Shown here: positions 4,218 through 33,266 of the stretch, piece after piece
Numbering within the stretch: position 1 is the first letter of the stretch
Layout of the letters: the number at the start of each line of letters is the position of its first letter
Origin: a virus
IMG/VR virus record: IMGVR_UViG_3300017708_001831
Coordinates: 1-48,621 of that record
Reading direction: 5' to 3' (one strand)
DNA: 48,621 bases
Translations under genes and position numbers: made by a program
Notes under the pieces: model-generated
Database searches by the model: none
Told to the model about the DNA's origin: nothing
Seen by the model: only the letters and a program-made list of their open reading frames with translations

Positions 4218-4637
4218 ATGGCATTAAAATCAATTACAGGAAAGCAATTTAAAAAGTCTAGATCATTTCTAGACTTAAATGTTGCTCTGTCTAGAAATCC
4301 TTTTACCGATGATGTATCTTCCGTACAGAATGATAATGCAATCAAACAAGCGGTTAAGAACTTAGTTTTGACTACACCTGGTGAAAAACCATTCCAACCT
4401 CTTATTGGTTCTAATGTAAACGATTTACTTTTTGAACCACTAGATGCCTTTACTGGGGATGCAATTAGAGATGAAATCATAAATACCATTAATCAGTATG
4501 AACCAAGGGTAGAACTGACTGAAGTTACTGTTGAACCAATATACGAAGGAAACAAATTTTCCATTGAAATAGAATACAGAATCGTCGGATTGCCTGTTGT
4601 TGAAAATATTACCTTTGTCTTACAGAGACCCGAATAA
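4218..4637 (+). CDS. 25: Baseplate wedge protein gp25
   Basis: At 139 residues it is close to T4 gp25 (132). It has the family layout: an N-terminal segment (SFLDLNVALSRNPFTDDVSS), a helix in DNAIKQAVKNLVLTTPGEKPF, the turn PLIGSNVNDLLFEPL, the helix ending INTINQYEPRVEL, and a C-terminal strand pair ending ITFVLQRPE. gp25 belongs to the GPW/gp25 family of contractile-tail baseplates and type VI secretion (TssE). With gp6 it forms the inner wedge that triggers sheath contraction. AAAGGA lies about 14 bases before the ATG. Its stop overlaps the gp6 start (TAATG), as expected for partners made in equal amounts. Confidence 0.9.
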   Translation: MALKSITGKQFKKSRSFLDLNVALSRNPFTDDVSSVQNDNAIKQAVKNLVLTTPGEKPFQPLIGSNVNDLLFEPLDAFTGDAIRDEIINTINQYEPRVELTEVTVEPIYEGNKFSIEIEYRIVGLPVVENITFVLQRPE

Positions 4638-15600: not shown

Positions 15601-18600
15601 GTTATCAAGTTCCCATTGATTAATGAACCAGAAGGTAATGCAGAAGTTTCCACATCTTCTTATAGCACAAGTTCTAAGAAAGCAGTTGGTTCAATTTCAA
15701 ACATTCGTATTGTAAATGCTGGTGGATTCTATCAAAAACTTCCTGTTGTCTCTGGAATTCAAAGTACTAGAAATATTGAAAGGGTTCAAATTAATGAACC
15801 AGGAACTGAATATGCCGTAGGTACTTACAATACTATTCCTATTCAAGGTGATGGAGAAGGTGGTCTGGTTCAGATTACAGTTGCTGATGGTCAAGATTCT
15901 GAAGGAGTTACTATTCCTGGACAGATTCAAGAAGTTGTAGTGACATCAGCAGGCAAGGGTTATACCACTGCATCTATTGATGTTGAGTCAATTGATGGAA
16001 TTCTTGGTGCTGGATTAACTGGATCGGGTGCTGAATTGGTAGTAGTCATTCCTCCATTTGGAACTGGTGCATCTATCTTCACTATTGGTACTAATGTTGG
16101 TAAAATTAAGAAACTTAAGAATAACAACTTTGGTTATGATTATCCTCATGACTACACTCTTCGTCCAGAAATTACTTTCCCACTGAATGCACAACTCACA
16201 TCCACAAGTATTCTTGATAGCATTACGGTAACAGACCCTGGTTCTGGATATTCACAAGCACCTGCTGTTGTCGTAACTGGAGGTGGCGGTTCTGGTGCTA
16301 TTGCTGAGGCAAGCATTAAAAATGGACGCTTAGACCAAATTATTGTTAAAGATCCTGGTTCTGGATACTCTTCTACTCCAATTGTTTCATTGAGGTCTTC
16401 TTTCAACTATGTTGTAAACCTCGACCTTGGTTTACTGCAGTTTGCTTTCCCACATGGTATTCCAAATGGTTCTCAAGTAACTCTGAATGTAGTTGATACT
16501 GGAGATGGAGCTGATTTCCCACTTGCTGCTGGTGCTTTAGGTCGTCTTAATGCTAGTACAACATATTTCGCGATTACAGGAACAGCGAATTCTCTAGAAG
16601 ATGACCAGATGAAGTTAGCAATAACTGCTTCAAACGCTGAATTGGGTGATTCTATCACTTTCGCTAACGCAGGAAACGGTCGTCAACAAGTACAAACAGA
16701 ATCTTTTGGTGGATCTGCAACTGGAAATGTTATTACATCTACATTCCTTGCTGGTGAGCTTGTTTATCAAGGTGATAGTCTTGACACTGCTATTGCAACT
16801 GGATATGTTTCAACAAACTCTGGTTGGCAGGTTGGACCAAGACTTCTTAAGATCGTCGATTATGTAGGTGAGTTTGTCGAAGGGCAGTCTATTACAGGCA
16901 CAATTTCTAAATCTTCTGGTATTATCAGTGACCTTAAGGTTGCTAAAGGTGTTCTTGACATTGGTTCTATCACCAAGACTACTGGACAGTTTATTGATGA
17001 TGTTGGTAAACCCTCCGAAATTATTCAAAAAATTCAAGACTCTTATTATTATCAGGACTTCTCTTATGCTGTTAAGTCTGCAGTTTCCATTAGTGAATGG
17101 AAAGATATTCTTATTAAGAATGTCCACCCCGCTTCATTCAAGGTATTTGGTGAACTTAATATCAATGAGTACGGTTCTATTCCGAATAAAGAGACTGATT
17201 TTGAATTAGTAAAATCTGTTGAACTTGCAAGAGAAGCAATTGTACCAAATATTCAAAACTTTGCTTTGGTTGAACCAGTATATTCTGAGTTCAATAATAC
17301 AGAAGTTTTGTTCCGTCAAAAGAGATTGACTTCTTCAGAGAACATCTTAACCTCTGTCGTTCAAAGACTTGATGATATTTCTAGTTTGTTTGATGGTGTT
17401 AGGATTTCTTTCCCATTGACTGTCAATGGAGAAAATGTTGTTGCTAACTCATCTCAATTGATGATTGTTTTGAATGGTGTTGCTCAAACACCGAATACTT
17501 CGTTTGAGATTCAGAGTGATTCTATTGTTTTCAGTGAACCACCTTCTCCTCCTGCTAGTGTTAAGTATGTGAATGTTTCTATCGATCAAATCGATACTTT
17601 TGAACTTACTTTTACTAATATTAGTGGCATCTTCCCAAATATTGGTAATGATTTAGTCGGTACTGCATCTAATGCTAGATTAACTGTAACCAAGGTTGTT
17701 GGTAACAATGTATTTGGATTTGTAGTTGAGGGTACTTTCATTATTGGAGAACTCTGTACCGTTGGTGCAACTGGATTTGCATCTAATCTATCTTCTATTA
17801 CGGCAATTGATAATCTTGGATTATTCACCTTTGGAGAGACAGTTACCAACTTAACTGGCGATACAGCAAAGGTAGAACAAATCAACCTTGAGACTGGTCA
17901 AGAGAATGCTATTGCTGAACTTAGGTATACCATTGGTGCTGCGACTGCTTCCTTTGAGGTTATTGATAGAAGTTCTTATACTGATTCTCCTGTCGCATCT
18001 GGAGTCTTTGTAGTAAATGAATCCTATCAAATTGGTTCTGAAATTATTAAAGTTCTTACTATCACAAATAATTCAGATTCTACTACTCTTGGAGTGTTAA
18101 GAGGTCAGCAAGGCACTCAAGCATCTGCCAAGACAGAGAATACACCTATTTACGGTACTCAAATTGAAGTTACTGGTGACCTTACTCTTAGTAAAACTGC
18201 TGGTACTTATCAATCTACACCTGGTCTATTTGATATCCAACTCAATGATGTTGTTATTGGTGCAGCATCTGGTGTAGTTGCTCGTATTACTGCAACAAGT
18301 ATCTTCCAGGATCCAATAACTCAAGAGTTCATTTCTCAGATTAATATTTCTGAAGGGTCTTCTTTCTTTGGTCTGTTATTCAACAGAATTGCGTCCAATA
18401 CATATCCAAATGTTGTTCTTGATGATATTTCTCAATCTCAAGTTAATATTGTAGAATTTGATGATAATACTACAGCATTTGATACTTCATTCCCTGCTAA
18501 CGAACCAATTAACAATTTCGTAGTTCCTTACGATAATGCAGTTGGGACACTACAGAATGATGAATATATCAGAAACTATAAGATTGAATATGGTAATAGT

Positions 18601-21600
18601 AATGGTAACTTCACTGCTAGTGAAGGTCTTAAAATTAGAAAACTCACCTTTAAAGATCGTATAGGAACTGGATTCTTCTCTGCTGGTCAAGTAATCAGAA
18701 CGCAAGATACTAAGGGAGAGGTCATTGGTTATAGTCAAGCAAGTAAAGTAATTTACATCGGTAAAATAGGTAGAACCTTACCAACTGGTGCTGATTATCA
18801 TACAGTAACATTCGTTCAGGGTTCTCAATTAAATACCTATCATAAGAAGTTCAGCACTGCTTCTCTGGCACTTTCTAAGGGCACATCCGCTCACACATTC
18901 ATTAGTGGTGTCGATAATGCAATTGCACTCACTGGCGGCGGTGCTGGTCCATTTACTGCTGCATCAGGAACTGCTTACGATCCATTAACTGGTTTGATGA
19001 TTATTGAGATTGGTACTCATTCTCTTACTACAAGCGATAGTGTTACTATTGCGGATGATGGAGTTGTATTTACCTGTGATTCTGATAATGATACAAATAA
19101 CTATGCATATCCTAGAGCAACTGACGCTGCATCTGGAACTGCTCTTAATATCAGTGCAGTAACTTCTACAACGATTACTGTTAATGTTGGTGCTGTTCCT
19201 ATTGATGAATATGTAACAATTCCTACTTCTACTGAATTTGGTTTTGGTACTGGTGCATTAACAATTGAATGTTATATCAAACCTCTCAATGTTGCTGGAA
19301 ACAAAACTATTTTTGATATGAGAACGACAGCAACTGAAGTTTCTCCATATCTGTACCTGGATGGTGCAAATCTCAAGTATTATGTTAATGGTTCAGACGT
19401 AATTACTGGTACAGCAAATCTTGTTGCTGATACTTGGTATCACGTTGCTATTTCCAGGAATGGTAGCACCACTAAGATGTTTATTGATGGTGTACAAGAC
19501 GGTGCTGATTATAGTGATGGTAGTGATTATGGTTCTACAAAACCAGTAAGAATTGGTGCTGCATTCGATGCAGGTAATGTATATACTGGTTATGTTGATG
19601 AATTTAGAATTTCTGACACTGCTCGCTATACAGCAGCATTTACATCACTGAATGGAATCTTCCAAGGTGATGCTAATACTAAGTTACTCCTTCATTTTGA
19701 CGGCATCAATGGTCAGACTTATACCGAAGACTGGTCTGGTGGCGAATCATTTACAAATCTTGAAGAATTTAATAATGACGCAATTCTTGCAACTTCTAGA
19801 GTAACTGGCGCACCCGCTGGATTTGCTGGTAAGACTCACAGATATATTGATGCTGCGAATCTAATTACTGTCAATAAGGACTTTATTGCTAAAGAAGCAG
19901 TTTACTTGCTGACCCAGCAATATCCATCACTTACAATTCCTGGTGGTAATGTAAATTGTGAAGATGATATTCGTGACATTCTCGATGCTATTGTTGAGGA
20001 TATGCGTAATGGTTCTAATAACCATATGTGGGATGCAGCTGCACTTTACGTTAATAGAAATCTAAATCCTGTAACTCTCAATCATGTTGAGACAGAAATT
20101 ACTGAAACTATCTGGGCATATAATAAAGTCAATGATATTCTTCAGTACATCATCAATAATGTTCTTTGGACAGTTTCTGGTAACCATGGGTTAACTCAGA
20201 AAACTGATACCACAATTACTGACTCTAGTACATCTTCTCTGACACAGATTAGTCCTACAACTGCTACTTACGATCATACTAATGGCGATTTTGTCCTTAC
20301 AATTGGTTCACATTCTCTAACCACTTCTAGTCGTATTGCTCTTGCTGGTGATTCGATAGCATTTACTTGTGCTAGTGATAATAATCAAAGGGTTCTTACT
20401 TATCCAGACCCAGATTCAGCATCTTACAATTCAGTTCTTCCTATTACTGCTGTTACTGCAACTACAATCACTGTTAATGTAGGTACTCCTCCAACAGATA
20501 GTACTGGTTATTCCACACATACATTCAATGGTGATGGAAGCACTCTAGCAAATGCTATCACAGTTCTTGACTATACAACTGGTGATTGTGCAGATGTCTA
20601 CAGTACTATTGGTAATCTGATTGACATTCTTACTGATACTCTTACCGAAGCAGAAACTCCAACAAATACTGCAACTGGAGACCACCTGGCAACTATAACC
20701 AAGGTCACCCCTGCATATGAGTTTATTGGTGGTACTGTTGATGCTTACTTAGAAGTTCCTATTACTGCAGATTATCATGATGGTGCTTTAGATGTTGTCT
20801 ACACAAATCAAATTGATCTTGACTCCAGATATCGCTTCTATGATGCTGCTAATTTGCTTAGAGCAAACTCTTCTGTAATTGTTGACAAAGCAGCAGCAGA
20901 TATGATTGCTAGATATCCAGATCTCAACTTGGATATGCCTAGAAATTCTGATGGATCTGGTGCTGGTACTTTAAGATGTAAGACTGACCTCGCTCTGATT
21001 CTTGATGGAATTATCGATGATGTTAGAGATGGTGGTAATAGAAATACTGTTCAGGCGGGTAATTTCTACTTAGGTCAAAATGATGAGTTGTTACATATTC
21101 GTTTGCAGGTATTCCAATCTGTCTATGCTCACGAAAGACTTGCATATTATGCGAAGCAAGCGATTACTGGTGATTTAGATTATACAAATACTGATGATAT
21201 TATTACTGGTGATTGGGGTATTACAAATGACGCAGGTGGTTGTCAAAATGTAAAAGATGTTATTGACACTTTAACTGCAACTCTTAATGATATTATTGCT
21301 CCAACAAGTGCAGATTTTGAGATTGGTGCTGATAGACTATATTTCAACCGCCAATACATCGCTGAAGAAATTACAGGTCTCACTACAGCAGAATTTACAT
21401 ATACACTTAACAATATTAATTACCTTGCGTTTAGTTATCCTGGTAGTAATGGTGAAGTGACTTGTCAGAGAGATCTCAAACTCATTCTTCTTGGAATTAT
21501 CTCTGACTTACAAACTGGCGGAACTAATTCCACCATTGCAGCAATTAAGACATATCTTAATTCTGACAATACTCTCAATCATATTGAGAATGAATTATTA

Positions 21601-24600
21601 GCAACAGTTTATTCAATTGAACAACTTGCAGTTGTTGGTGAATATGCCCTTCGTAATTATCTTTATGAGCAAGGTGCTAATGCATCTGCACCTAATTACA
21701 ATGCACTCTATACTACTGAAACTGGTTACAGAGATAGTGAATCTACGACTGACATAGATTCGGTAGTCTTCAGACTCCGTGACTTGGTAGATATTGCTGT
21801 AGGTATTCTTGCTCCTTCTGGAGATGCTGGTCGTGCCGCTGCTAAGAACCTTCTTTATAATAGAAATTACTATAAAAACGAAATTACACAAAATGTAAAT
21901 AATCAGTTTGGTGCTAATTCTTGGACTTATGATGATTTCTTAGATGATATGGTTGATAATGTTGTTCATGACATCATTACCACAGATACATCATCAACAT
22001 CTAGTGCTTATGATGTATTCCTTGAGAATATCGGGGGCAGTGCAGAATTTGCAGTTAATGAAGTAGTTACTTCTAGCGGTGGAGGAACTGCAACAATTCT
22101 TGAATATTCAAGAGAAGATACATTCATGGTTGTAGGTACATTCACAGGAACTGCATGGGTTGCTGGAGATACCTTAACTGGTGCGAATGGTGGTACTGCT
22201 ACTATTGCATCTGGTCTTGGAGGTTCTGTTCAATTTAACGGTACTAATTATACCCGAGTTGCAAGTAGTCCTGATTTCCAGTTTGGAACTAATGCTATCA
22301 CCATTGAAGCATGGATCTACAGAACTTCAACAGGTGCGTTCCAAGTAATTGGGTCTGTACAGGACAATTTCAACCTGTTTATTAATAATAATGGTATGGG
22401 TTTCTATGGTGGTTCTGGAGCTAGTTTCTTTAGTCGCTCAGCCACTTTTGCTCAAAACACTTGGTATCATGTTGCCATTGTTAGAGATGATGTTTCCATC
22501 GGTAGCACTAGATTGTATGTAGACGGTGTTCAAATTGGTCTGTCGGGTTCATGGCTCACTGACTATAGCAGTGCTATTGAACCTCTTATTGGTCGCAATA
22601 GTCTCACTGGACTAACGTATGCTAATGGGTATATTTCAAACCTTAGAGTTGTTGAAAGTGCTCTGTATACTGCAAACTTTACTCCACCTGTAACTCCGTT
22701 GAGTGCAATATCTAACACTGCACTGTTAACATGTCAAGGATCTACAAGTGATAATGGTCCTAGTGGTCATTCTATCACTGAAGTTAATTCTCCAGTATCT
22801 AGTACTGTTACTCCATTTGCTACTGCTGGTGGAATCAGTAATGTATTTACTTGGTTCAATACTCCAACTAATGTTAAATCTCTTGGACTAGCAAGAACTA
22901 TTACCTCAAATATTACTGGGCAGGTTGCTGGTATTAACTTGCTTACTAATCCAGAAAATATAGCATTAGGTCTTAATACTGGACTGTCTACTGGAGTGAC
23001 CGCTGATGCAACTGCTTCTCCTGATGGTACATTGACTGCTGATAAAGTTTATGCTGGTACTGCCAACAGCGAGCATTCGAGATATAAGAATTATACTCTT
23101 ACTGCTTTTGAAACTTTCGATGGTAGTTCAGTTAAATTTGATAATGGAACAGAAACATTCGACACAGGTTCTACTTCGGGCGATTCTGAACAGCAGTTTA
23201 CAACTTCGATCTTCTTGAAGTCAGGTGAATTCTCCAGAGTACGTTGGGAATTAGGTCTTGATGCTGGTGCTGCTACAAGAAAACTGGCATTCTTTGATAT
23301 TAATCTTTCTGATGGTACATTCTCTGGAACTCCGTTTACTCCTCAGGGTGGTATTACGGTAAATGACCACGGTCTTATCCCATATGGTAATGGATGGTAT
23401 AGAGTATTCATTACAGCAACGTTCTCCTTCGGTGTTTCTGAACTTCGCTCGACTCTGTATGTGAGAAATGCATCTGGTATTGCTTCTTATGCTGGAGACG
23501 ACGTATCTGGTGTTTATGCTTGGGGTTTGAAACTCAATAAGGGAGTTATCGATCCATATGCAGCAGTATCTGGCGAAGTATTCTATTCTGATACTGAGTT
23601 TAATGTTAAAACATATACTTTAGATTTGCTTCAGGATTATATGTCAAGTGCTCTTGACAACACATTATTATCTCCTTCGGGCATTGCTGGATTCTTTAGT
23701 TACTATGATCCAACAGCAGCTTCAGAATATTCCTTGAATTCGTTCTCGGCATTGGTTAGAAATGGGTTGAATATTGTTAATAGACAACTTGCTGATGATA
23801 CACATTATACCCAATTACAAACAATTAACGGTATTACTGTTCCAAGTGAGACTTATGGAACTAGAAATGTTCCTGTTGGTATTAGTGGTGGGATTCAAGG
23901 TTCTGACTATATCTACGGTATACAAAGTGATGTATATGGTGAAGTTGAATCTGTTACACTGAATGAAGGATTTGTTGTTAAGGTTTACAAGAGATTCCGA
24001 ATTGATGGTGATATCACTGATGGACCATTCACAATGAATGAATCTGTTCAGAAGCAAGGTTCTTCTGGAGTAACAGGTACTGTTTATGGATTCTTTGAGG
24101 ATGAAAACTTCAAATATATTGACATTGAAATCACTGCAGGAGTTTGGGCAATCACCGATACTATTGTTGGTGCAACTAATTCCACAACTGCTCAAATCAG
24201 TGCCATTGAAGATAGAATTCACATTATTGACCTTAAGGGTGAATTTAGTAATGATATTCCATTCAAAGCATTTACTAGTGGAGCAACTGCTACGCCAACA
24301 GGATTCATTAAGACTGAAGCAGCAGTAACTAGTAATACTGGTGGTAGACTCATTGTAGATACAGAATCTTTGATTGGAACCTTTGAATCTAATGCAGTTG
24401 TTTATCCAAATACATCTAGACAGTATCTGGATGTGTCTAAATTTGCTGGTCTTGATGTTGGTGTTGGTGATAAGATTGCTTCTACTGGATACGCAAGACT
24501 TGGAATTTCTATCCTGAGTAGTCTTAATGACTTCACAGTTGGAAATAGACTCTATCGCGTTATTGCAGGTCAGCAAGATTCTTCAACATATGGAATCATC

Positions 24601-25833
24601 ACAAAGATTGACCTTGATAATAACTTTATATACGTCAGTGAGTATCAAGGTAGTTTCGCAAATGGAGACCAGGTTGGTGATTATGGAATTGCATCCAATA
24701 TACCACTTGGTTATGCTACAGTTAATACTAGAATTGTTAACACAGGATCTGCATCTGCAAGGGTTCAAGATATTCGTAATGTTGGTATCAATAAGAGATT
24801 ATATCTTACTGATATTGCAGGAACTTTCGCGGACACAGATGCAATTAAATCTTCTGATGGATATGAATCTGCAATTCTTAGTATTGTTGATCTCAAGGCA
24901 AGAGTCAAACGTTCCTTTAAAGGATTTGATGGTACACAAACTAACTTTAAACTTTCTACGGATAATGGCACGCAATATTTGCCTGATCCTGAAGGTCACA
25001 TGCTCATCTTTATCAATGGTGTCTTGCAACCTCCTGGTGCTACAAACGCATTCACGGCATTCTCTGATGAAATCCAATTCACAGAAGCTCCTGAACTTGG
25101 TTCCTCCTTCACTGGATTCTATGTTGGTAAGTTGAGACAACTTGACGATATTTCGTTCGAGTTTGATTCTTTACGCCAATCCTTCAACTTGAAGCGTAAT
25201 GATGTATTCTACTCATTGACTTTGACTGAAGGTGTACAATCTAGCGTTATTCGACCTGAAAATAATATCATTGTCTCGCTCAATGGTGTTATTCAGGAAC
25301 CTGGAATTGGATTTGAAATTGTTGGTTCTAGAATTATCTTCTCTGAAATTCCTCGCTTTGGTTCTTCATTCGTTGCGTTCTCTTACGTTGGGTCTGAAGC
25401 AGACGTTGATGCAGCAGAAGTTATTCCACCAGTCGAACCAGGTGATTTGATTCAAATTCAGGGTGAAACAGATGACCGCGAGGTTGCTGTTATTGAATCT
25501 TCTAACTCTTTGATTACTTTCGACTACTTGGGTTCCGTCTTCGGTCAAGGTGCTCAAGGAACGGCAAATCTTACAACGGGTACAATTGATACAGTTTCAG
25601 TGACATCAGGTGGTTCTGGATATACTTCACGTCCATCTGTGAGACTGGATTCTATCTCTGGTTTTGATGGTCAAGTCCGAGCTCTTGTAGGTGTTGCGGG
25701 TGTCGAAGTTACATCTGCTGGTTCTGGATATAAGAATCCAGAAGTTATTGTAGAGAGTATAGTTCCTGATGACTGGACTCCACCAAATCTTGCCGACTAT
25801 GGTGAAGAATTGGTCGATCCTGAAATTGTTTGA
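6670..25833 (+). CDS. Giant mosaic tail/baseplate-associated protein (6387 residues)
   Basis: One uninterrupted frame. Blocks by eye: 1-60, N-terminal block with FFGSEYPLFNKFIEYYYR; 138-295, two FDG..F/NG..I.F units; 305-620, eight G-x-G-Y repeats; 657-737, a block (KDFYSAKGTSFSIAYLFKLL) that I associate with marine T4-like tail proteins; 1127-1360, six more repeats; 1365-1580, YHYH-like domain; 1607-1618, EF-hand loop; 1825-2213, probable beta-propeller; 2230-2425, 4179-4346 and 5186-5358, LamG-like domains; 3456-3498, a second apparently conserved block ending HPASFKVFGELNI; 4390-5117, four helical repeats; 5423-5635, carbohydrate-binding-like; 6084-6241, two FDG-type units. There is no membrane segment. 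It follows gp6, where T4 has gp7, but no gp7 similarity is evident. A peripheral baseplate or fibre-like adhesin is the likely role. Confidence 0.75.
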   Translation: MNINKVSQSVRANTPDFFGSEYPLFNKFIEYYYRSQEKTGLGQNIVNNFLQYLDIDKLDIGILDGATKVVENVTPTDDVIIVESVDQFLEENGSVLIGDEVIYYESVTSSPNIALSPGISYEQVRVKWRTLSNLIDSFDGTTNTFPLVSQDIPISVPTAQHLVVQNYGQVLIPNVDYTINGTSIQFTNPPRARIPADDNSATYIFYLSGFIENPIIAVDNISNSFGNDVKSFKMTLNGQKYEPIVDEYVVAIYDNRLLTPKVDFYIDKDSFIFNTPPLNGRILSIHSIEAPIPSFGSGAIGFSRVNGSGEITDVLINETGSGYRFDYPPQVNISSETGTDASVSSLVDGVKTVQLLSGGKGYSSTNPPIAQIEQPTKIGSKIAVLKTTVTNGSVDSLTIENSGSGYTFTPRVTFKQPGGAKIAAPTVTNEQITGTIVITEPGFGYSTPPLVYIDEPTGLNGIKAAFSTTISESGELTSVNILNPGQGYESVPKLKIIDPVGAQILDVRVDGDGRVIGIDLLDGGSGYEDIPSIYIVDDRVDTRGVYIGGSNATAVASIFNGRITDINIDNFGTGYSADNPPTVIIQNPPSAKASVEIGLNEITGFDVNQSGTGYTKASLVGCARASSGVTSYTESGNAVFSNNTVASSFSADTEVKCLDALFVKRLLDKYTEQFLPDVPSLDYKSIDVRTSIKTIKDFYSAKGTSFSIAYLFKLLYGETVSISYPKDQIIKPSAATWSVDTILRATLVSGDPTNIKDALLTQEEDIADPNIKNASALVENYISIKTSDVEIFELVLSEETIEGEFVVPYKTKLAEPLDTTASIITVDSTIGWPERNGKFIIGGTELIEYKEKSLNQFIECTRSANGIVEDWDSATEVTSNFRVYLNRNTLQEVVMDIVGIVDAQQTTLTDTGSYYLPGDKLNISKLGGTSDIPELNTWLYNVKKLIEVTSITFGGVNDQSATVTCSNPHGLLVGDQVTVYGANPIIYNGTFLVTSRDSETVFQYQLPQPGLVIPQGNILVSIDLNKGKSDNSAVFNAIGPYTTNVQNSFFNDNYVYVASTGIPNYKIGPFPGSALLPGNQRKLNRFPLLSTTISNKNLIQPGAIGTWINGVSIWSYKSPVTKTFGAVTDISIVNSGESYDAAFPPSITIAGGGGTGASASVTVNGSINEITVLTGGSGYTSSPLVSIVGGGGSGASATAIITKGVVSRILIVDGGTGYTSQPSISIVGGEGTGATGEASVRGPIKSISVDAGGESYTSEPAITLSSGSGAVAQSIVSDGRIISIAIISAGQGYTTPPIVTIQGDGFGAIARASIDRTGENAGRVTSIEIINRGIGYTQGQTIINMDSVGQGATFSANVFEWTYNLQETSTFDGADGSVFIGYNNQYGGEYAHLSNPQRLRYILGDNLTEVNSVVSEIDDSLEHSPIIGWAFDGNPIYGPYGYNDPTDQTSNILRLQSSYKLKSNLVYDDVTNPYPSRTAGPLLNDEPAGKFIEDYEYSFSLGDLDQYNGRFCKTPEYPEGRYCYFVTIDNTTVGDPVFPYVLGPSFNSVVDEWNLSSTAIQQNIPTGVVRFRDPYENVDIDVDRAPNASTNSLSLENGDILLFEVEDENRDGIISADELDDPDQVFEESPLQLFDYFPTVRFDSKVDIEVETTTKFEDASVTGFTIENAGQNYQVDDRLLFDNDNTGGTGVSARISRIKGEDIASYNFETLSGSNFGVLTTSEPHNIIAGDTVFVDYTPVMNNTSKQFVVRQYKGIEQINIIQTGSGYNEDIPPVITIDGDGEAGELSATVTSVGSIENVSILNSGSGYSTNPRVILSHPQIFKKADYYVSLISNNDYVKVNDVVVNDRKESFICGKTKDSSGNTVAFVAKLSATGVKEWERNLELPSTQNYAEFERILVDGNDIWVVGNNRPNSVILDSYNPDIIIAKYAQADNGLSATLTFQKAYAGISGATREDVITSIKKMSDTEFVIGGYTNTNSANPYDAFIASINVDGTFSVKRKLASINKSEKLTDLLVVGTDVYFTLETAATVSSDDIKVSVGKVTIGTSVIEIDWINEISSSLYSFMDSSIVIDEFNELYVPCALRLKTDNETKNVFWVGKFDTSGTQIWNYAYAAPGRDITLASNSSIDIFGDLNIAYTRTDNVTDLKTVATVKIDYTGKIVNHSISEFDDDNIEGITVHALDTDTSGDVHVFGQTSWNRNEFIFEFSETDTATDKTGHYTPTLIGNDATDSLTLAGDGYAKLFGKDIASPSNWENAAIKFPAADLGTKLNEDWTIEFMLYKDATNSDTHSQTQQTLLAIGDATDATGGLWLYYDISNGQLELVVTNNATTINATGSGLTSTQTNMFADDSWQFIGLTKSGDSFTAYVNGVQIFTGTVANTALGSKDLHFGNIPGKNGTTAAFVSNYQGQYYIDNLRLRNRTITPTVPSDVLTIPPTASFALAFDWADDAWFTTNMNQYDYIDYNGFGLKVDKTADAIRLGDQGLQSNTGVSFERTAVTPVTGATLVLSTGEFVLAGAGFQSLDFDSAVTTMTQDTETLTYTQDVWSSRTATVPSPGSQKLKVEAVVKDRYYFKVTPTLKIDNIQELTINQFFRFTTNTKLVLRDDAGAFINSGYIVKVDSPNNKIYLAVNNNSWSDDLNTGNLVTEQFDEQSSFGIVGPIPNDINEINAFNFIQVNNTTPGTFVVDLATYDSPTGGTNNLDQFATFKPYSDDDYNIRIDEVSGSSPFVVGSVVTINSGDITFNSTYSEATITNVTGVLKITLITNLKKKLQVTAVSNSDEVYVITQTAHYLSAGEMLYIDGNPTQTVGGVVYDEYDGSFAVESVVSPLEFTYKLPSVAVSSPATSAGSVDIFIKSPVLKMYYGHQYVFNLGHSTMAGGNLSFSKDNLYKLEYSFNSIERIGTPGVTGEGQPIPTVKLKVDKNIVTNISYYFDPSRTTDDTSPVIKNSYLDVVDSPYKGTFLVSGVSGGTITRGADVIKFPLINEPEGNAEVSTSSYSTSSKKAVGSISNIRIVNAGGFYQKLPVVSGIQSTRNIERVQINEPGTEYAVGTYNTIPIQGDGEGGLVQITVADGQDSEGVTIPGQIQEVVVTSAGKGYTTASIDVESIDGILGAGLTGSGAELVVVIPPFGTGASIFTIGTNVGKIKKLKNNNFGYDYPHDYTLRPEITFPLNAQLTSTSILDSITVTDPGSGYSQAPAVVVTGGGGSGAIAEASIKNGRLDQIIVKDPGSGYSSTPIVSLRSSFNYVVNLDLGLLQFAFPHGIPNGSQVTLNVVDTGDGADFPLAAGALGRLNASTTYFAITGTANSLEDDQMKLAITASNAELGDSITFANAGNGRQQVQTESFGGSATGNVITSTFLAGELVYQGDSLDTAIATGYVSTNSGWQVGPRLLKIVDYVGEFVEGQSITGTISKSSGIISDLKVAKGVLDIGSITKTTGQFIDDVGKPSEIIQKIQDSYYYQDFSYAVKSAVSISEWKDILIKNVHPASFKVFGELNINEYGSIPNKETDFELVKSVELAREAIVPNIQNFALVEPVYSEFNNTEVLFRQKRLTSSENILTSVVQRLDDISSLFDGVRISFPLTVNGENVVANSSQLMIVLNGVAQTPNTSFEIQSDSIVFSEPPSPPASVKYVNVSIDQIDTFELTFTNISGIFPNIGNDLVGTASNARLTVTKVVGNNVFGFVVEGTFIIGELCTVGATGFASNLSSITAIDNLGLFTFGETVTNLTGDTAKVEQINLETGQENAIAELRYTIGAATASFEVIDRSSYTDSPVASGVFVVNESYQIGSEIIKVLTITNNSDSTTLGVLRGQQGTQASAKTENTPIYGTQIEVTGDLTLSKTAGTYQSTPGLFDIQLNDVVIGAASGVVARITATSIFQDPITQEFISQINISEGSSFFGLLFNRIASNTYPNVVLDDISQSQVNIVEFDDNTTAFDTSFPANEPINNFVVPYDNAVGTLQNDEYIRNYKIEYGNSNGNFTASEGLKIRKLTFKDRIGTGFFSAGQVIRTQDTKGEVIGYSQASKVIYIGKIGRTLPTGADYHTVTFVQGSQLNTYHKKFSTASLALSKGTSAHTFISGVDNAIALTGGGAGPFTAASGTAYDPLTGLMIIEIGTHSLTTSDSVTIADDGVVFTCDSDNDTNNYAYPRATDAASGTALNISAVTSTTITVNVGAVPIDEYVTIPTSTEFGFGTGALTIECYIKPLNVAGNKTIFDMRTTATEVSPYLYLDGANLKYYVNGSDVITGTANLVADTWYHVAISRNGSTTKMFIDGVQDGADYSDGSDYGSTKPVRIGAAFDAGNVYTGYVDEFRISDTARYTAAFTSLNGIFQGDANTKLLLHFDGINGQTYTEDWSGGESFTNLEEFNNDAILATSRVTGAPAGFAGKTHRYIDAANLITVNKDFIAKEAVYLLTQQYPSLTIPGGNVNCEDDIRDILDAIVEDMRNGSNNHMWDAAALYVNRNLNPVTLNHVETEITETIWAYNKVNDILQYIINNVLWTVSGNHGLTQKTDTTITDSSTSSLTQISPTTATYDHTNGDFVLTIGSHSLTTSSRIALAGDSIAFTCASDNNQRVLTYPDPDSASYNSVLPITAVTATTITVNVGTPPTDSTGYSTHTFNGDGSTLANAITVLDYTTGDCADVYSTIGNLIDILTDTLTEAETPTNTATGDHLATITKVTPAYEFIGGTVDAYLEVPITADYHDGALDVVYTNQIDLDSRYRFYDAANLLRANSSVIVDKAAADMIARYPDLNLDMPRNSDGSGAGTLRCKTDLALILDGIIDDVRDGGNRNTVQAGNFYLGQNDELLHIRLQVFQSVYAHERLAYYAKQAITGDLDYTNTDDIITGDWGITNDAGGCQNVKDVIDTLTATLNDIIAPTSADFEIGADRLYFNRQYIAEEITGLTTAEFTYTLNNINYLAFSYPGSNGEVTCQRDLKLILLGIISDLQTGGTNSTIAAIKTYLNSDNTLNHIENELLATVYSIEQLAVVGEYALRNYLYEQGANASAPNYNALYTTETGYRDSESTTDIDSVVFRLRDLVDIAVGILAPSGDAGRAAAKNLLYNRNYYKNEITQNVNNQFGANSWTYDDFLDDMVDNVVHDIITTDTSSTSSAYDVFLENIGGSAEFAVNEVVTSSGGGTATILEYSREDTFMVVGTFTGTAWVAGDTLTGANGGTATIASGLGGSVQFNGTNYTRVASSPDFQFGTNAITIEAWIYRTSTGAFQVIGSVQDNFNLFINNNGMGFYGGSGASFFSRSATFAQNTWYHVAIVRDDVSIGSTRLYVDGVQIGLSGSWLTDYSSAIEPLIGRNSLTGLTYANGYISNLRVVESALYTANFTPPVTPLSAISNTALLTCQGSTSDNGPSGHSITEVNSPVSSTVTPFATAGGISNVFTWFNTPTNVKSLGLARTITSNITGQVAGINLLTNPENIALGLNTGLSTGVTADATASPDGTLTADKVYAGTANSEHSRYKNYTLTAFETFDGSSVKFDNGTETFDTGSTSGDSEQQFTTSIFLKSGEFSRVRWELGLDAGAATRKLAFFDINLSDGTFSGTPFTPQGGITVNDHGLIPYGNGWYRVFITATFSFGVSELRSTLYVRNASGIASYAGDDVSGVYAWGLKLNKGVIDPYAAVSGEVFYSDTEFNVKTYTLDLLQDYMSSALDNTLLSPSGIAGFFSYYDPTAASEYSLNSFSALVRNGLNIVNRQLADDTHYTQLQTINGITVPSETYGTRNVPVGISGGIQGSDYIYGIQSDVYGEVESVTLNEGFVVKVYKRFRIDGDITDGPFTMNESVQKQGSSGVTGTVYGFFEDENFKYIDIEITAGVWAITDTIVGATNSTTAQISAIEDRIHIIDLKGEFSNDIPFKAFTSGATATPTGFIKTEAAVTSNTGGRLIVDTESLIGTFESNAVVYPNTSRQYLDVSKFAGLDVGVGDKIASTGYARLGISILSSLNDFTVGNRLYRVIAGQQDSSTYGIITKIDLDNNFIYVSEYQGSFANGDQVGDYGIASNIPLGYATVNTRIVNTGSASARVQDIRNVGINKRLYLTDIAGTFADTDAIKSSDGYESAILSIVDLKARVKRSFKGFDGTQTNFKLSTDNGTQYLPDPEGHMLIFINGVLQPPGATNAFTAFSDEIQFTEAPELGSSFTGFYVGKLRQLDDISFEFDSLRQSFNLKRNDVFYSLTLTEGVQSSVIRPENNIIVSLNGVIQEPGIGFEIVGSRIIFSEIPRFGSSFVAFSYVGSEADVDAAEVIPPVEPGDLIQIQGETDDREVAVIESSNSLITFDYLGSVFGQGAQGTANLTTGTIDTVSVTSGGSGYTSRPSVRLDSISGFDGQVRALVGVAGVEVTSAGSGYKNPEVIVESIVPDDWTPPNLADYGEELVDPEIV
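7600..8520 (+). repeat. G-x-G-Y beta-repeat block 1 (eight units, protein level)
   Basis: Within the giant gene, about residues 311-617, eight units end in GSGY, GKGY, GSGY, GFGY, GQGY, GSGY, GTGY and GTGY at intervals of roughly 35-50 residues. Each has the form strand, G-x-G-Y, P-P-x-V-x-I, Gly-rich turn, strand. The units are diverged at DNA level, so this is an old array and not a recent tandem duplication. Confidence 0.75.
10048..10740 (+). repeat. G-x-G-Y beta-repeat block 2 (six units, protein level)
   Basis: Within the giant gene, about residues 1127-1357, six units (GESY, GSGY, GTGY, GESY, GQGY, GIGY) are spaced about 35-40 residues apart. Most have a very Gly-rich turn such as GGGGTGASA or GGGGSGASA. 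These units are more alike than those of block 1, which suggests later expansion. Confidence 0.75.
19837..22020 (+). repeat. Four helical repeats in the giant protein
   Basis: Units lie at residues 4390-4500, 4719-4835, 4888-5002 and 5059-5117 (the last incomplete). The shared pattern is D-A-A-N-L (or a variant), about five residues, then a helix with E-A/E-I, then a YP-type turn, a single Cys followed by x-x-D-[IL], a helix of the type ILDAIVEDMRNG, and then L-N-H-[IV]-E and a last helix. The first three units are 110-117 residues long. They are the only strongly helical part of a mostly beta protein. Confidence 0.7.
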
Positions 25834-25872: not shown

Positions 25873-27093
25873 ATGGCTAAGCAATCACTTAATCTTGGTA
25901 CTGTCGCCAACGATAACACGGGGGATACCCTCCGTGCTGGCGGCGATAAAATTAATGATAATTTCACTGAGCTATATGATGCTGTTGGGGCTGGAGGAGA
26001 AATCCGAGTTAGCATAGCTAATGCTGCGGCAAATCAAGTTTTAAAATTTAATGGAACTAACTTTGTACCATCTGATTATTCATCTCTGACTTCAGCATTG
26101 AATGTCAATGGCAACTCGATTATTTCCTCTTCAAACGCTAACATTGTAATTGCTCCTAATGGGACGGGAAATGTTAGTTTAAGTTATGGGACTGGAACTG
26201 CGACCTTTAATGGTAGTACAAACATTGTAGATTTTAGTACCGCAATCTATTATAAGAATGAATATGCTGCTATAGGTAATGCTCCTGCTGCTGCTACTTA
26301 TCCTGGATATTTTTTCACCGTAGATGGTGATGACAATCCATATGTAAATATGAACATTACCGCTGGTGGTGTTGGTGATACTAGAGCAGCATTACTTACT
26401 CAATATTCTAGTATTGATGATTTACTTGATGTTGATATTACAACTAATGCACCTACCACTAATCAAATTTTGAAGTGGGATGGTAGTAACTTTGTTCCTG
26501 CCGATGATGCTGCTGGAATTGGTTCTATTAATTTATTTGCAACTGTTGCTGGTGATACTGGTTCTACAACAGCAAATAGTCAAACAGATACATTAACTAT
26601 CTCTGGTGGAACTAACATTACAACCGCAGTTAGTGGTGATACATTAACCATTAACTTTGATGGTACTTTAACAACAACACTTGCTGCTCTTACAGACACT
26701 AATGTTACTGGTATTACTCAGGGTGATTCTTTATATTGGAGTGGAACTGAATGGGTTGTAACTCGTAGTCCAATGACTTGGTGGGAAGTTAATGCAAATG
26801 GTGCATCTGATTATACTTTCAGTGGTCCTGGATTTCCAACTACTGCAAATGACCCTACAATCTACGTGACGAGAGGGGCAACATACGCATTCGATAACTC
26901 GGTGCAAGCGGGTGCTCACCCATTCAGAATTCAGAGCACCCAAGGATTGAGTGGTACTCCATATACCTCTGGACAATCTGGTAGTGGTTCTAGTGTGTTG
27001 TATTGGACTGTACCAATGGATGCACCAACTACACTGTATTACCAATGCACAATCCATGCTGCTATGAATGGAACAATTAACGTCGTAAGTTGA
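25873..27093 (+). CDS. Virion protein with C-terminal cupredoxin-like domain
   Basis: The 406-residue product starts with LNLGTVANDNTGDTLRAGGD and KINDNFTELYDAVG, an N-terminal module common in phage tail-fibre proteins. The middle has two similar segments, NQVLKFNGTNFVPSD (about 54-68) and NQILKWDGSNFVPAD (about 197-211), of a tail-fibre repeat type. Residues 301-406 look like a cupredoxin: T-Y-A-F-D-N, A-H-P-F-R-I, then Y-Y-Q-C-T-I-H-A-A-M-N-G-T-I. Candidate type 1 copper ligands are His349, Cys392, His395 and Met398; the C-x2-H-x2-M spacing equals that of amicyanin. The protein lies between the giant tail gene and a larger protein with the same site. It is almost surely a virion component; copper binding is inferred. 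Confidence 0.7.
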   Translation: MAKQSLNLGTVANDNTGDTLRAGGDKINDNFTELYDAVGAGGEIRVSIANAAANQVLKFNGTNFVPSDYSSLTSALNVNGNSIISSSNANIVIAPNGTGNVSLSYGTGTATFNGSTNIVDFSTAIYYKNEYAAIGNAPAAATYPGYFFTVDGDDNPYVNMNITAGGVGDTRAALLTQYSSIDDLLDVDITTNAPTTNQILKWDGSNFVPADDAAGIGSINLFATVAGDTGSTTANSQTDTLTISGGTNITTAVSGDTLTINFDGTLTTTLAALTDTNVTGITQGDSLYWSGTEWVVTRSPMTWWEVNANGASDYTFSGPGFPTTANDPTIYVTRGATYAFDNSVQAGAHPFRIQSTQGLSGTPYTSGQSGSGSSVLYWTVPMDAPTTLYYQCTIHAAMNGTINVVS

Positions 27094-27098
27094 GATAA

Positions 27099-30000
27099 AT
27101 GGCAAGAACTGTCCCTGGAACTGGCGCTGTCATCGAACCTATTTTCGATGATATATTTGGCGTTAAAGCGATACGAGTTGTTGACGGAGGAACTGGATAT
27201 GATATCTCAGATCCACCTAGATTAGTCGTCACTGGATGTGGTATTCCTGTTGAGGAAGCACTTCTATATCCAATCATTGACGAAGATTCTGGTAAGATTG
27301 TCCACGTTAGAGTTTTAAATAGGGGTAGAGGATATGACCCACTAAGACTCCAAATTACTCCCGAACAAGAAACTCCTGATGTTGTAACGTCATTTGCTTT
27401 CAATAAAATTTGGCAAACCCATCCAAACTCTCCTACTTCAGGAACATTTTTGTTGGATTCGGATGATAATATTACTGATAGATTGAGAATTGTATCTGAC
27501 AATCATCCTAAACCATCACCATTTGAAACTGAAAGAGTTCCTGGTGGCGGACCCCTTGTCGATAGAAATTTTGACCAGACATTTATTCTTAGAGCTGGAA
27601 AGGATGTACCTTTCGGATCTGATAGAGTAGAACAAAAAGATAAAGTAACTGGTATTTTTGCAAATGGTGGGTTACTTCATACTCCAGATTGGGATACTGA
27701 TGGAGGCACTCTTCCAGGATTTAGTATTGATACTGTAAAGTATCCATATGTAAAAAATTCAAATATTTACGATGTCATAACAGAAAATAATAATTACTAC
27801 TATCATAGTAGTAAAACATTGGATGAGTTTTCTCTAGATAATGGTGTATTTGATTGGGGCAATCTAAAGCAGTTTACTTGGAATGTAAAAGTTGAATATG
27901 GTAATATTTTAATCGATGTTACCAATCTCGATGAATCTCTTGGTGCTGTTGAAGTTGGTAGAATTTGTGAAGAAATTGGTGGTAATGCCCGAGGAGAAAT
28001 TTCTAAAATTATAAGAGATGGACAGGGTGCTATTACTCATGTTTATCTAAGAGCAGTTGACTTCGCATTTTCTGCTGATGATGTAATTTTAGGTTCAACT
28101 GGATTCCAGTTTAGAATTGGTTCGGATCCTATTTCTCTTAATGTATATTACATTGAATTTGGACCTGATGCTGAAAAATTTGGACCATTCGCACCAGGTG
28201 TGTTTTATTTTGCACCAGAAAATATTCAAGTAAAAAGAAATTACTTAATTAAGTTTAATCAATCAGATGCATCTAATGCTATAGGCATAGGTCATCCAAT
28301 TCAATTGAGCACTAGTCAAGATGGTCTTTTGAATGGTGGAAGTTTATATTATAATAGTACAGGTGTATCTAATGCTCCTGCTGCAGATTATGAAAATGAA
28401 TATCAGACGGTATTCATTATGAATCCTGATGAAAGTAGTAGAATTTACTACTACTGCAAGAATCACAGATACATGTCTGGATATGCAGGAAATGAGGGAT
28501 ATATGACTCTCAGTTCTGCAACTGAGGATGAACCAACTGAAAATGATTATTATGTTGGGGAATTCTTTAGAGGACAAACAACAATTAGTCCTGATGAAGT
28601 ACTAAATGACTATTCAGGTGTATTATCTAAAGCTACTATTGAAGATAGTGGCAGTGGTGTTGGTCCAACTGGTGGATTTAATATTGGTAGACATATAAGA
28701 TTTGGTAGTGGTGCAGGAACTAGACTTGTTCAACTTACATTAGATCTACGAAACGTATTTACATTAGATTTAGAAGTCATCCGAGGTAATGATAGTAACG
28801 GTGGAGAACTAGTTGACTCTACTGAAGATTTTAGAATTTTCTTTCCAGGAACTGTGTATGGTTCTAGCGTTGTTGCTGCATGGAATGATAGTAGTTTTGA
28901 TACTCTTAAAACGGTAACTGTAGGTATTCCACCCGATTCTAGAAACCAGAATCAGGTAGTCTATATTTACATGCAAGATGCGAACGGTCCAACTTATGAC
29001 CACTGGGGACTTAAATCAATATCCTATGGAGGAGGAACTGACGATTTTGCACGTCATCCAAATGGACACTCTAAAGTTATTGGTATGTCCTTCGATGGAT
29101 ATCCAATTTACGGACCTTTTGGTTATGATTCTACTGGTTCTGTAATAAAAGAAGTATCTTCTTATAGACTAAAAACTGACTTGGAGATGCCAGGTGCCAG
29201 ACCTTTAGTAAGTACAACTGGTACGGTTACTTATAATTTAACCGTTAGTAGCGGATCATTCGTATTCGACGGAAGCACTGTCCCATTTGTATCTCTTGAA
29301 AGAGGGAAAACTTATATTTTCAATCAGGATGACTCTAGTAATGATGGTCAGACATTATTGATTTCTGAGGGAGTAGATGGTTGGCATGGCACGGTTCCGA
29401 TTACTATTGGAGACACCAATCAGTTATATGCTGGTCAGGGTATTTCATATTACATTGATGGTTCTGAAGTTACATATTCAACGTATATAAGTTCATTTGA
29501 CGCTGCATCTCAAAGAGAACTTAGATTTGAAGTTCCTGTTAATGCACCAAGACTTCTTTATCTCTTTTCTTATAGTAATTCTGGATATAACATTAGAAGT
29601 GTTCAAGACAAGTATCTTCGTGGAGATTTGGTAGAAGATTACATTTATGAAGAAAATTACGGTACTCTAGATGAATATAATGGTAAATTTTCTGTTACTC
29701 CAGAGTATCCAAATGGTACGTATGCATATTTTATGACGGAGGACTCCTCTGGGAATCCAGTATATCCTTATGTTATTGGTCCAAAATTTTATGGCACACC
29801 TATATTTGAAGGTGACTCTGTACCTGACCAAGAAACGGTTCTTCCTTTTGGAGCAAGCGGTGATATTATTATTGATAATGGTGCGGTATCTTATATTAAG
29901 ATGTCTACCAATGGAGACAATTATTTTGGCGCTGCAAATGCAAGAATACTCGGTGGTGAAGGAACAGGAGCAACTGGTTCTGCAGTAGTTCAAACTGTTA

Positions 30001-31694
30001 CAGGTCTTGCTCTTACAGGTGCTGGTAGACAGTATGCTACTCCACCTACCGTTATTTTTGAAGGTGGTGGTGGACAAGGTGCTCAAGGAAGAGCGGGAAT
30101 TGATACACTAGGTAAAATTACTTCTATTTCGGTCTCAGATCCAGGAGAATTTTATCAACAACCTCCGTTCATTCTTATTACTGGTGGTGGCGGTCTTGGT
30201 GCAGAAGCAGTTGCTAGAATCCAACAAGGTTCTGTTGTTGGTATTGATGTTACTAATCCTGGTGAAGGATATACAAGTCAACCAAATATTATCTTTACTA
30301 AACTTGTAAATTTAAAGCGCAGGACAAGATCCAGACAGGCATTTAATTCCTCAGAAATTTATCTAACTGGACTGATAAAAAATGTTACTGCATCAGATAG
30401 TGAAATCTATGTTGATTCTACTGATGCATTTCCTGGTTCTGGTGAAATTATTCTTGGTACTGAAACCATTGCATATACATCAAAATCCACCAGTAAATTC
30501 TCTGGACTAACTAGAGGTGTAAACTTTAATTATGACCAAAGAGTTATTCTTGACTCAGGTCAAGATGTCAATGGAATATCAACATACAAATTTAATGTTG
30601 GTGATAGAGTTATCCGTAGAGTTGAAAATGCTAGCAGTAAAATTGCTAAAGTTTATGACTGGAATCCTAGTACCAAGGAACTCTTAGTTACATTTGAAGT
30701 TGATGAATTAGCATTTATTGATGGTGGTATTCCTTCTACAGAAGATGCCATTGTTCAATTTGATGCTGGTGTTGCATCTACTGCTCCATCAGGATTCCTA
30801 CCACACGTTGTACTAAATTCTATTGGTGATAATATTTTCCTTCTTACAGATCCACCATCTCTTCTTACAGATAAAACCTTTGAAGATGATGATGAATTAG
30901 ATGGTGCTGGAAATGGTATTATTGATTTGGTAAATACTGGAACTGGATATGAAAATCAAATCAATTTAGATGGTGGTATTTATTCATCACTATATGGTAT
31001 TGAAGAAACTATCGGTGGGCAGAACACAACCCTATTCCAAGTTGGTGACAGTATTAAGGATGGTAGCATCCCATTCAGATATGCTAATATTGGAGCTGCA
31101 GGAACGTTAAGTGATGGTGTTGAACATAATTCTGTAATTTATCTATATCTTGATGCTAACTTTGGAAATGGTCAAAATTATAGTGTTAATGAAATTATTA
31201 CTGGTTCAGTTTCTGGTGTACGAGGAACTGTAGTCAGTTGGGATCCATCATCACAATTACTGGTTGTTAATAGCATTGTGCCTTTCAACACTGGTGATGT
31301 CAATGTTGGTATTGCTGGATTGTTATATGAATTCTCTCATAATTCAACAGTTGTTGACTTTATAATCCAGAGTCCTGGAACAAACTATAGTGCCGTACCA
31401 ACAGTCACTATTGAGGATACTGGAGATATTGCTTGCACAGCAACTGCAACTATGACTACTGCTGGTGACCAAATTGCTTCATTGACAATTACTAATGGTG
31501 GATATGGAATTCAGCAAACTGTTGATGGTTCATATAATTTACATCCAACAGTAACATTCACTAATGATGGAAGTGATACTACAGGTTCTGGTGCTGTAGC
31601 ACAAGCAATCATTGGCGGTGAAACTATCAATGGTAATGGTGGTGCATCATATAGAATTAAGCGAATCGAGTACCAGACAGTTATCCGTTCGTAA
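27099..31694 (+). CDS. Large tail-associated protein with cupredoxin-like and YHYH-like domains
   Basis: The 1531-residue product starts with a G-T-G-Y unit (residues 24-45). Residues 345-475 resemble a cupredoxin with His399, Cys453, His456 and Met459 as possible copper ligands. Residues 650-900 hold a YHYH-type domain: [20 protein letters not shown], then [20 protein letters not shown], with the signature changed to Y875-A-Y-F878. A second cupredoxin-like fold without ligands (about 707-835) seems to be inserted in it. Three to four G-x-G-Y-type units follow (about 935-1070) and two more near the C-terminus. The start is five bases after the preceding stop. Marine T4-like phages often carry a large protein of this kind before gp8, sometimes annotated VrlC-like. 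The role is inferred to be a baseplate attachment. Confidence 0.7.
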
Positions 31695-31733: not shown

Positions 31734-33266
31734 ATGGCAGCTCTACTTACTGATCAATTTAGAATTTTTTCTGCGAAAAAATTTATCAAATCATTGGAAG
31801 GACCAAATCCTAACGATAGTGATGATATTGCAGGAATTTCTCGCGACCGTTTATATTTGTTCATTGGGAGACCTCAACCCTGGGACAATGAGAACTCACC
31901 ACCTCAAGCGGTAGACTCTTTCGGAGAGTTTTCTGCTTCATATGATGATATGGTTTCATTGAAGAGAGTTCTCGCTGCGGATACCGTTCAAGTTGTTCGT
32001 AGAATTGACTGGGTTTCTCCAGAACAAACTACTGGTGGATTAGGTTTCACCTACGACATGTATCGTCATGATTATTCCCCTAGTAAAACCGCTGCCTCTG
32101 GTGCTACTAAATTATATGATTCTGACTTTTATGTTGTAAATTCACAATATCAAGTATATAAAGTAATTTACAATGGTACTTCTCCTTCTGATCCAAACGG
32201 GAAGCCTTCTACTGTTGAACCTACTGGTACTTCAACTTCCATTATCACAACTGGTGATGGTTATCGTTGGAAGTATATGTATACGATTCCTGTTGCGTCG
32301 GTCTTGAAATTCTTTTCTAATGACTATATGCCAGTCTTTACCAATGATGCGGTGAAGACTAATGCAGTATCTGGTGAAATCGATACTGTTGTCATTAACG
32401 CTGCTGGTGCTGGTTACAACAATGGTACATATGATAACGTTGCCATCAATGGAGATGGTACTGGTGGTCGTGTTTCCATTGTTGTTGATGGTGGTAAAAT
32501 TATTTCTGCTACCGTAACTTCTGGTGGTACTGGTTATACTTTTGGTAAAATCAGTGTTGATAATATTACTGGTATTGGTACAGGAACTAGTGCTCAAGTT
32601 GATGTCATCATTCCTCCTCCTGGTGGGCATGGTGCTGATGCGGTTGTTGAAACTGGTGCTTTCCGTGTGATGGTTAATGCCAAACTTTCTTATGATGAAG
32701 GTGCGGGTGACTTCCCGATTGATAACGACTATCGTCGTATTGGTTTAATTACCAATCCTTTAAAGTTTGGTACGGCAGAACTCATCTCTGATTTGACAGT
32801 TTCTGCTACAAAAGCAGTCATTTTTCCACCATCATTTCAAGGTAACTATGTTCCCGATGAAATTGTTACTCAAACAAGAGTTGTTGGTGGCACAAACGTT
32901 ACTGCTCGTGGTCGTGTTATTTCTTGGAATGCTACTACCAAGGTTCTGAAATATTATCAGAATGCTACAGATGGTATTTTCCCAGAAGTTACTGGTACGC
33001 AAAATGAATTTGATGGTTCTAACGTTATAAACGGTGCAACATCAGGTGCTGCTGGACAACCAGATACAAACTTCCCTGCTGTTCCTAATTCGTCTTCTAG
33101 GACAATCAACAATACCGAGTATGACTTGGGTATGAAGTTTAATAATGGATACGCAAAACCAGAAATTGAATCAAACAGCGGAGACGTTGTTTATATAGAT
33201 AATAGAAGATCAATTAGTCGTGCAAACGACCAGGTAGAAGACATCAAAATCGTAATCGAATTCTAA
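31734..33266 (+). CDS. 8: Baseplate wedge protein gp8
   Basis: The N-terminus (MAALLTDQFRIFSAKKFIKS, then DRLYLFIGRPQPWDNENSPP) and the segment GDGYRWKYMYTIPVASVLKF near residue 182 are the pattern of gp8 in T4-like marine phages. T4 gp8 has 334 residues; this one has 510. The extra length includes two or three G-x-G-Y units at about residues 218-295 (AGAGYNNGTYDNVAI, GGTGYTFGKISV), the same repeat as in the neighbouring large proteins. gp8 is a dimer in the outer baseplate wedge that contacts gp7 and gp10 in T4. Its stop overlaps the next start (TAATG), so translation is probably coupled. Confidence 0.82.
   Translation: MAALLTDQFRIFSAKKFIKSLEGPNPNDSDDIAGISRDRLYLFIGRPQPWDNENSPPQAVDSFGEFSASYDDMVSLKRVLAADTVQVVRRIDWVSPEQTTGGLGFTYDMYRHDYSPSKTAASGATKLYDSDFYVVNSQYQVYKVIYNGTSPSDPNGKPSTVEPTGTSTSIITTGDGYRWKYMYTIPVASVLKFFSNDYMPVFTNDAVKTNAVSGEIDTVVINAAGAGYNNGTYDNVAINGDGTGGRVSIVVDGGKIISATVTSGGTGYTFGKISVDNITGIGTGTSAQVDVIIPPPGGHGADAVVETGAFRVMVNAKLSYDEGAGDFPIDNDYRRIGLITNPLKFGTAELISDLTVSATKAVIFPPSFQGNYVPDEIVTQTRVVGGTNVTARGRVISWNATTKVLKYYQNATDGIFPEVTGTQNEFDGSNVINGATSGAAGQPDTNFPAVPNSSSRTINNTEYDLGMKFNNGYAKPEIESNSGDVVYIDNRRSISRANDQVEDIKIVIEF

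What the first reader, a model, noticed from the sequence alone, without database searches (positions are those of the whole stretch)
25873..31694. Amicyanin-type copper sites in two neighbouring virion proteins
The 406-residue protein has His349, Cys392, His395 and Met398, and the next gene's 1531-residue product has His399, Cys453, His456 and Met459. Both have C-x2-H-x2-M after an aromatic-rich strand (YYQC, YYYC) and an upstream His-Pro, the full ligand set and loop spacing of amicyanin-type cupredoxins. The rest of the two domains differs, so the shared ligands look selected. This is not a phage plastocyanin gene but a domain built into tail proteins. It could bind copper for stability, sense or use host redox metal, or be a fold whose site is a relic.
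Basis: partly seen in the sequence, partly recalled or inferred. Interest (0 to 1): 0.72.

Follow-up and report, generated by a model that had tools for sequence, protein, structure and literature searches.

The report
Copper-site domains in cyanophage baseplate proteins
Two neighbouring baseplate proteins of a marine cyanobacterial virus carry built-in domains of the blue-copper (cupredoxin) fold whose four metal-binding residues are kept almost without exception across related viruses, so these virus tails very probably hold metal, a feature I found nowhere described.

Summary
The 406-aa protein is a cyanophage gp9 (baseplate wedge/long-tail-fibre connector); the 1531-aa protein is a YHYH-containing baseplate wedge protein. 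Both have H-P...C-x2-H-x2-M exactly where stated; shuffles give 0.008 CxxHxxM motifs per window, against 2 seen. A profile of 15 phage domains matches rusticyanin, plastocyanin, nitrite reductase and amicyanin with the ligands aligned (E 7e-6 to 2e-4). AlphaFold2 gives the gp9 domain at pLDDT 96.7, and Foldseek returns blue-copper proteins.

The domains are homologous, one mobile module found in many cyanophage tail proteins. And the large protein holds a third copy (residues 704-829) that kept the fold but lost every ligand. The full set is kept in 127/127 gp9 domains and 116/124 B domains (7 of the other 8 keep His-Cys-His), but no ligand remains in 116/129 C domains. In the one clade that lacks domain B, domain C is intact. 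So the site is lost or kept as a set, and every orthologue checked keeps at least one.

Metal binding is very likely. Copper identity and role are untested. Best guess: a metal-locked structural/attachment module; a redox or copper-sensing switch is less likely. It is not an amicyanin family member.

The parts
25873..27093 (+). gp9-like baseplate wedge / long-tail-fibre connector, 406 aa
   Evidence: PHROG 677 E 8.5e-194; 338 phage records with tblastn matches, annotated 'baseplate wedge tail fiber connector'
25879..26139 (+). N-terminal domain shared with T4 gp9/gp10 (residues 3-89)
   Evidence: PF07880 E 4.5e-10; PDB T4 gp10 E 1.2e-6 and gp9 E 0.0015
26770..27090 (+). cupredoxin domain A (gp9 residues 300-406), intact site
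   Evidence: AF2 pLDDT 96.7, pTM 0.88; Foldseek PDB rusticyanin, CuNIR, AcoP, amicyanin, pseudoazurin, prob 1.00
26917..26919 (+). His349, first ligand (His-Pro)
   Evidence: His in 127/127 unique gp9 domains
27046..27066 (+). Cys392-x2-His395-x2-Met398 ligand loop
   Evidence: kept in 127/127 unique gp9 domains
27099..31694 (+). baseplate wedge protein P0002, 1531 aa, YHYH-containing
   Evidence: PHROG 708 E 0; PF14240 E 6.6e-18
28110..28526 (+). cupredoxin domain B (residues 338-476), intact site
   Evidence: phage cupredoxin profile E 2.6e-9 on the window; iterated HMM E 3.7e-21; H65, C119 and H122 of the alignment invariant in 59 orthologues
28293..28295 (+). His399, first ligand (His-Pro)
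28455..28475 (+). Cys453-x2-His456-x2-Met459 ligand loop
29043..29174 (+). first part of the YHYH domain, with conserved His653, His657 and Asp666
   Evidence: (alignment positions 319 and 332 nearly or fully invariant, 323 invariant)
29208..29585 (+). third cupredoxin copy, domain C (residues 704-829), no ligand left, inserted between the two parts of YHYH
   Evidence: iterated HMM E 5.3e-21; no Cys/His/Met ligand in 116 of 129 unique orthologous copies
29583..29747 (+). second part of the YHYH domain (residues 829-883)
   Evidence: PF14240 best stretch

Best explanation
Domains A and B are genuine cupredoxin domains with a complete type-1-copper ligand set (His, Cys, His, Met; amicyanin-length loop), built into the baseplate of a T4-like cyanophage. 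Domain A is the C-terminal domain of gp9, the part that by analogy with T4 gp9 meets the long tail fibre. Domain B sits in the neighbouring wedge protein, ahead of the YHYH domain. Shown by computation: homology, predicted fold, ligand conservation, descent from one mobile module, and loss of the site as a set in copy C. Inferred: the site binds a metal, most likely copper, picked up during assembly or from seawater. The bound metal most likely locks an exposed beta-sandwich at a joint or attachment surface of the tail, keeping its loops rigid and the domain stable outside the cell. Redox chemistry is possible but not needed for this.
For: Ligands at the stated places and not by chance. Profile of phage domains hits rusticyanin 7e-6, plastocyanin 8e-6, CuNIR 1e-5, amicyanin 2e-4; in the alignments printed the His, Cys, His and Met columns line up. 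Eight of 15 members match PF00127 Copper-bind (best 4e-4) and seven match TIGR02657 amicyanin (best 2e-4). AF2 pLDDT 96.7, with the first His just before strand 52-55, Cys93 at the end of strand 88-93 and His96/Met99 in the loop before strand 100-106, the cupredoxin plan; Foldseek best hits are blue-copper proteins. In an unfiltered set reduced to 50% identity the six best-kept columns are H50, G36, M99, Y91, H96 and C93. Site kept in 127/127 gp9 domains and 116/124 B domains, with H-C-H in 7 of the other 8. Copy C of the same protein has lost all ligands while keeping the fold signature, and where B is missing C is intact.
Against: No metal has been measured. Ligand distances could not be checked. 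TM-scores to solved cupredoxins are only 0.40-0.57. The residue after the first His is Pro, not the Asn/Ser usual in small blue-copper proteins. No electron-transfer partner is apparent, and the structural role is inferred, not shown. The fold can survive without the site (copy C), which argues that metal is not needed for folding as such.
Confidence: 0.6

Rival explanations
1. The copper site is a redox or copper-sensing switch: metal state or light-driven redox at the host surface changes gp9/fibre geometry and gates adsorption or contraction.
For: Type-1 sites are electron-transfer sites in all close structural relatives (established knowledge). Gp9 sits at the fibre-baseplate junction. Some cyanomyoviruses adsorb poorly in the dark: P-HM2 does not adsorb to MED4 in the dark (PMC7112961), and its relative P-HM1 has a virion ORF with two intact copies of the domain.
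Against: No redox partner and no direct data. The link to light-dependent adsorption is only an association. Not all cyanophages need light to adsorb, while the domain is nearly universal in cyanomyovirus gp9.
Confidence: 0.15
2. The domain is a receptor-binding or adhesion module that recognises a host surface component, and metal binding shapes the binding loops. The metal is needed for shape, not chemistry.
For: Copies occur in tail-fibre, tail-spike, lectin-like and peptidase-S8 virion proteins, and in a large secreted-type protein of a Flavobacteriales MAG. The module moves: extra copies are inserted within YHYH (L124, L128) and even inside domain B (L140, L144).
Against: Gp9 is a conserved structural connector rather than a variable host-range protein. 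The domain in gp9 is among the less variable parts.
Confidence: 0.2
3. The fold is cupredoxin but the site is a relic, or holds another metal such as zinc, with no copper in the virion.
For: Copy C shows that ligand-less versions exist. Assembly takes place in the cytoplasm, where free copper is scarce (general knowledge).
Against: A relic would lose ligands piecemeal. Here all four are the best-kept columns in gp9 and other virion ORFs, and loss is all-or-none in copy C. Met as fourth ligand favours copper over zinc (general knowledge).
Confidence: 0.15
4. Chance motif or convergent loop in an unrelated beta-sandwich.
For: Pfam does not reach its cut-off with the single sequence.
Against: Shuffle control, profile match to solved cupredoxins, Foldseek and conservation.
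Confidence: 0.02

Closest known systems
Small blue-copper proteins (rusticyanin, plastocyanin, amicyanin, pseudoazurin) and the blue-copper domain of three-domain copper nitrite reductase
   Same: Predicted fold, order of ligands, Cys at the end of a strand and His/Met in the following loop; significant profile matches and Foldseek hits
   Different: Not a free electron carrier but a domain built into baseplate proteins; His-Pro after the first ligand; no electron-transfer partner known; only 10-24% identity in the Foldseek matches listed
Amicyanin (TIGR02657)
   Same: Exact C-x2-H-x2-M loop spacing; 7 of 15 family members match the model weakly, best E 2e-4
   Different: Window sequence itself does not match the model at E<=1; residue after first His differs; no methylamine dehydrogenase context
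T4 gp9 (baseplate-long tail fibre connector)
   Same: N-terminal domain PF07880, tail-fibre-connector annotation, position among baseplate genes
   Different: The N-terminal match is the only one found to T4 proteins; the C-terminal cupredoxin domain was found only in marine phages, chiefly of cyanobacteria, and T4 gp9 is not among the 50 Foldseek hits listed
YHYH domain (PF14240), predicted metal-dependent hydrolase of phage tails (PMC7824862)
   Same: Present in P0002 with conserved His653, His657 and Asp666
   Different: Interrupted by a ligand-less cupredoxin copy and preceded by an intact one. The paper predicts a Zn site for YHYH and holds no mention of cupredoxin or copper
Cyanophage PetE plastocyanin (auxiliary gene)
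   Same: A blue-copper protein carried by cyanophages (PMC3037559)
   Different: PetE is a free soluble electron carrier used during infection; these are virion structural domains

Membership tests
Cupredoxin superfamily | Eight-stranded Greek-key beta-sandwich | tested here: met
   AF2 pLDDT 96.7 all-beta model; Foldseek prob 1.00 to rusticyanin, CuNIR, amicyanin, pseudoazurin, TM 0.45-0.57
Cupredoxin superfamily | Significant sequence-profile match to known members | tested here: met
   E 7e-6 to 1e-3 for many distinct blue-copper chains. The seed set of 15 was picked partly by the C-x2-H motif, but the match covers the whole domain
Type-1 copper protein | His, Cys, His and Met ligands in the right order and spacing | tested here: met
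   conserved
Type-1 copper protein | Ligand atoms within bonding distance of one metal | not testable with these tools
   model coordinates are not released
Type-1 copper protein | Bound copper, blue absorption band, type-1 EPR | not testable with these tools
   needs purified protein
Amicyanin | C-x2-H-x2-M loop | tested here: met
Amicyanin | Match to TIGR02657 by the window protein | tested here: not met
   domain A has no NCBIfam match at E<=1; 7 of the 15 family members match weakly
Amicyanin | Genetic link to methylamine dehydrogenase | tested here: not met
   Window is a phage structural gene block
T4 gp9 family | T4_gp9_10_N domain | tested here: met
   PF07880 E 4.5e-10
T4 gp9 family | Trimer bound to baseplate and long tail fibre | not testable with these tools
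   inferred from family annotation only
YHYH | PF14240 match above cut-off | tested here: met
   65.8 bits against cut-off 25, in two stretches
YHYH | His triad plus Asp of the proposed metal site | tested here: inconclusive
   His653, His657 and Asp666 are conserved; the third His was not identified

The most novel reading that the evidence does not exclude
Cyanophage virions carry blue-copper centres in the baseplate that act as a redox or copper-sensing trigger at the gp9-tail-fibre joint, linking host photosynthetic redox state or light to adsorption or contraction.
Probability: 0.12. Interest if true: 0.92.

Novelty: new variant of a known kind. Interest (0 to 1): 0.66.

Why it matters
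T4-like cyanophages are among the commonest viruses of the ocean, and nearly every gp9 found for them keeps a full blue-copper ligand set in the tail. If the metal is there, these virions are metalloproteins with a bound copper budget, a possible redox handle on infection, and a target for copper or chelator effects on cyanophage infectivity. It also gives a simple, cheap test (metal content and colour of purified virions) for a function nobody seems to have asked about. The ligand-less third copy gives a built-in natural control for what the site is for.

Tried and rejected
Single-sequence Pfam search gives no cupredoxin hit above cut-off (At5g54830-like domain 0.17, or 0.0088 for the domain alone), so the annotation was missed because of divergence, not absence. 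A1 and A2 could not be used for genome-wide pattern scans (no conserved stretch); single queries were used instead. Chance motif rejected. Convergence of A and B rejected. Relic reading rejected for A and B, accepted for C. The AF2 model of P0002 335-905 is of mixed confidence (pLDDT 79, pTM 0.38). Its best Foldseek hits are reelin/CBM jelly rolls and multicopper oxidases with poor superposition, so I do not use it as proof of fold for B and C; for them the evidence is the HMM. A3 was filtered for intact ligands when built, so its invariant columns are circular and are not cited as conservation evidence; searches are unfiltered. Literature: no paper holds cyanophage+baseplate+cupredoxin or cupredoxin+bacteriophage+tail fiber. 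One paper holds cupredoxin and cyanophage, on Borgs; by its title and abstract it is not about virions, and I did not read it. Only open-licence PMC papers are held, so prior notice elsewhere is possible.

Full report
What the region is. The window is a 48.6-kb virus fragment with a T4-like baseplate block: gp25, gp6-like (4637-6664), a 6387-aa virion protein, gp9, P0002 and a further wedge subunit at 31734-33266. The nearest named relatives are Synechococcus phages such as S-IOM18 (gp9 90% identical; P0002 81-82% identical in S-M1, QB2, WH25-B and S-IOM18). The 406-aa protein is the cyanophage gp9 (PHROG 677), with the T4 gp9/gp10 N-terminal domain. The 1531-aa protein is a wedge subunit (PHROG 708) with a YHYH domain.

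Noticed in passing
29208-29585 (P0002 residues 704-829): Third cupredoxin copy without ligands, inserted between the two stretches of a YHYH domain; intact in the ACG-2014d clade that lacks domain B.
   Followed up: yes
L140 and L144 (domain B region); L124 and L128 (YHYH region): Further cupredoxin copies nested inside domain B or inside YHYH, with C-x2-H-x2-Q (nested in B) or C-x2-H-x2-M (in YHYH) loops: the module inserts into loops of other domains.
   Followed up: partly
about 19828-19962 (6387-aa protein, residues 4387-4431): PF00502 Phycobilisome match, E 3.4e-6, above the Pfam cut-off, inside a baseplate protein; by eye the same helical unit (...PGGN..C..DI..IL..I..D...G.N...) seems to recur about three times there. 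Possibly a phycobiliprotein-like module in a cyanophage tail, or a helical look-alike.
   Followed up: no
6670-25833: Single 6387-aa ORF with a full YHYH domain (residues 1361-1533, E 1.5e-31) and three laminin-G/concanavalin-like stretches by Pfam.
   Followed up: no
41085-47339: 2084-aa protein starting with a major-tropism-determinant N-terminal domain (PF18454, E 1.9e-13), a likely tail fibre or host-range protein.
   Followed up: no
L285 (Flavobacteriales MAG), ORF residues 652-746: The phage-type cupredoxin domain with an intact site inside a large secreted-type multidomain protein of a bacterium.
   Followed up: partly
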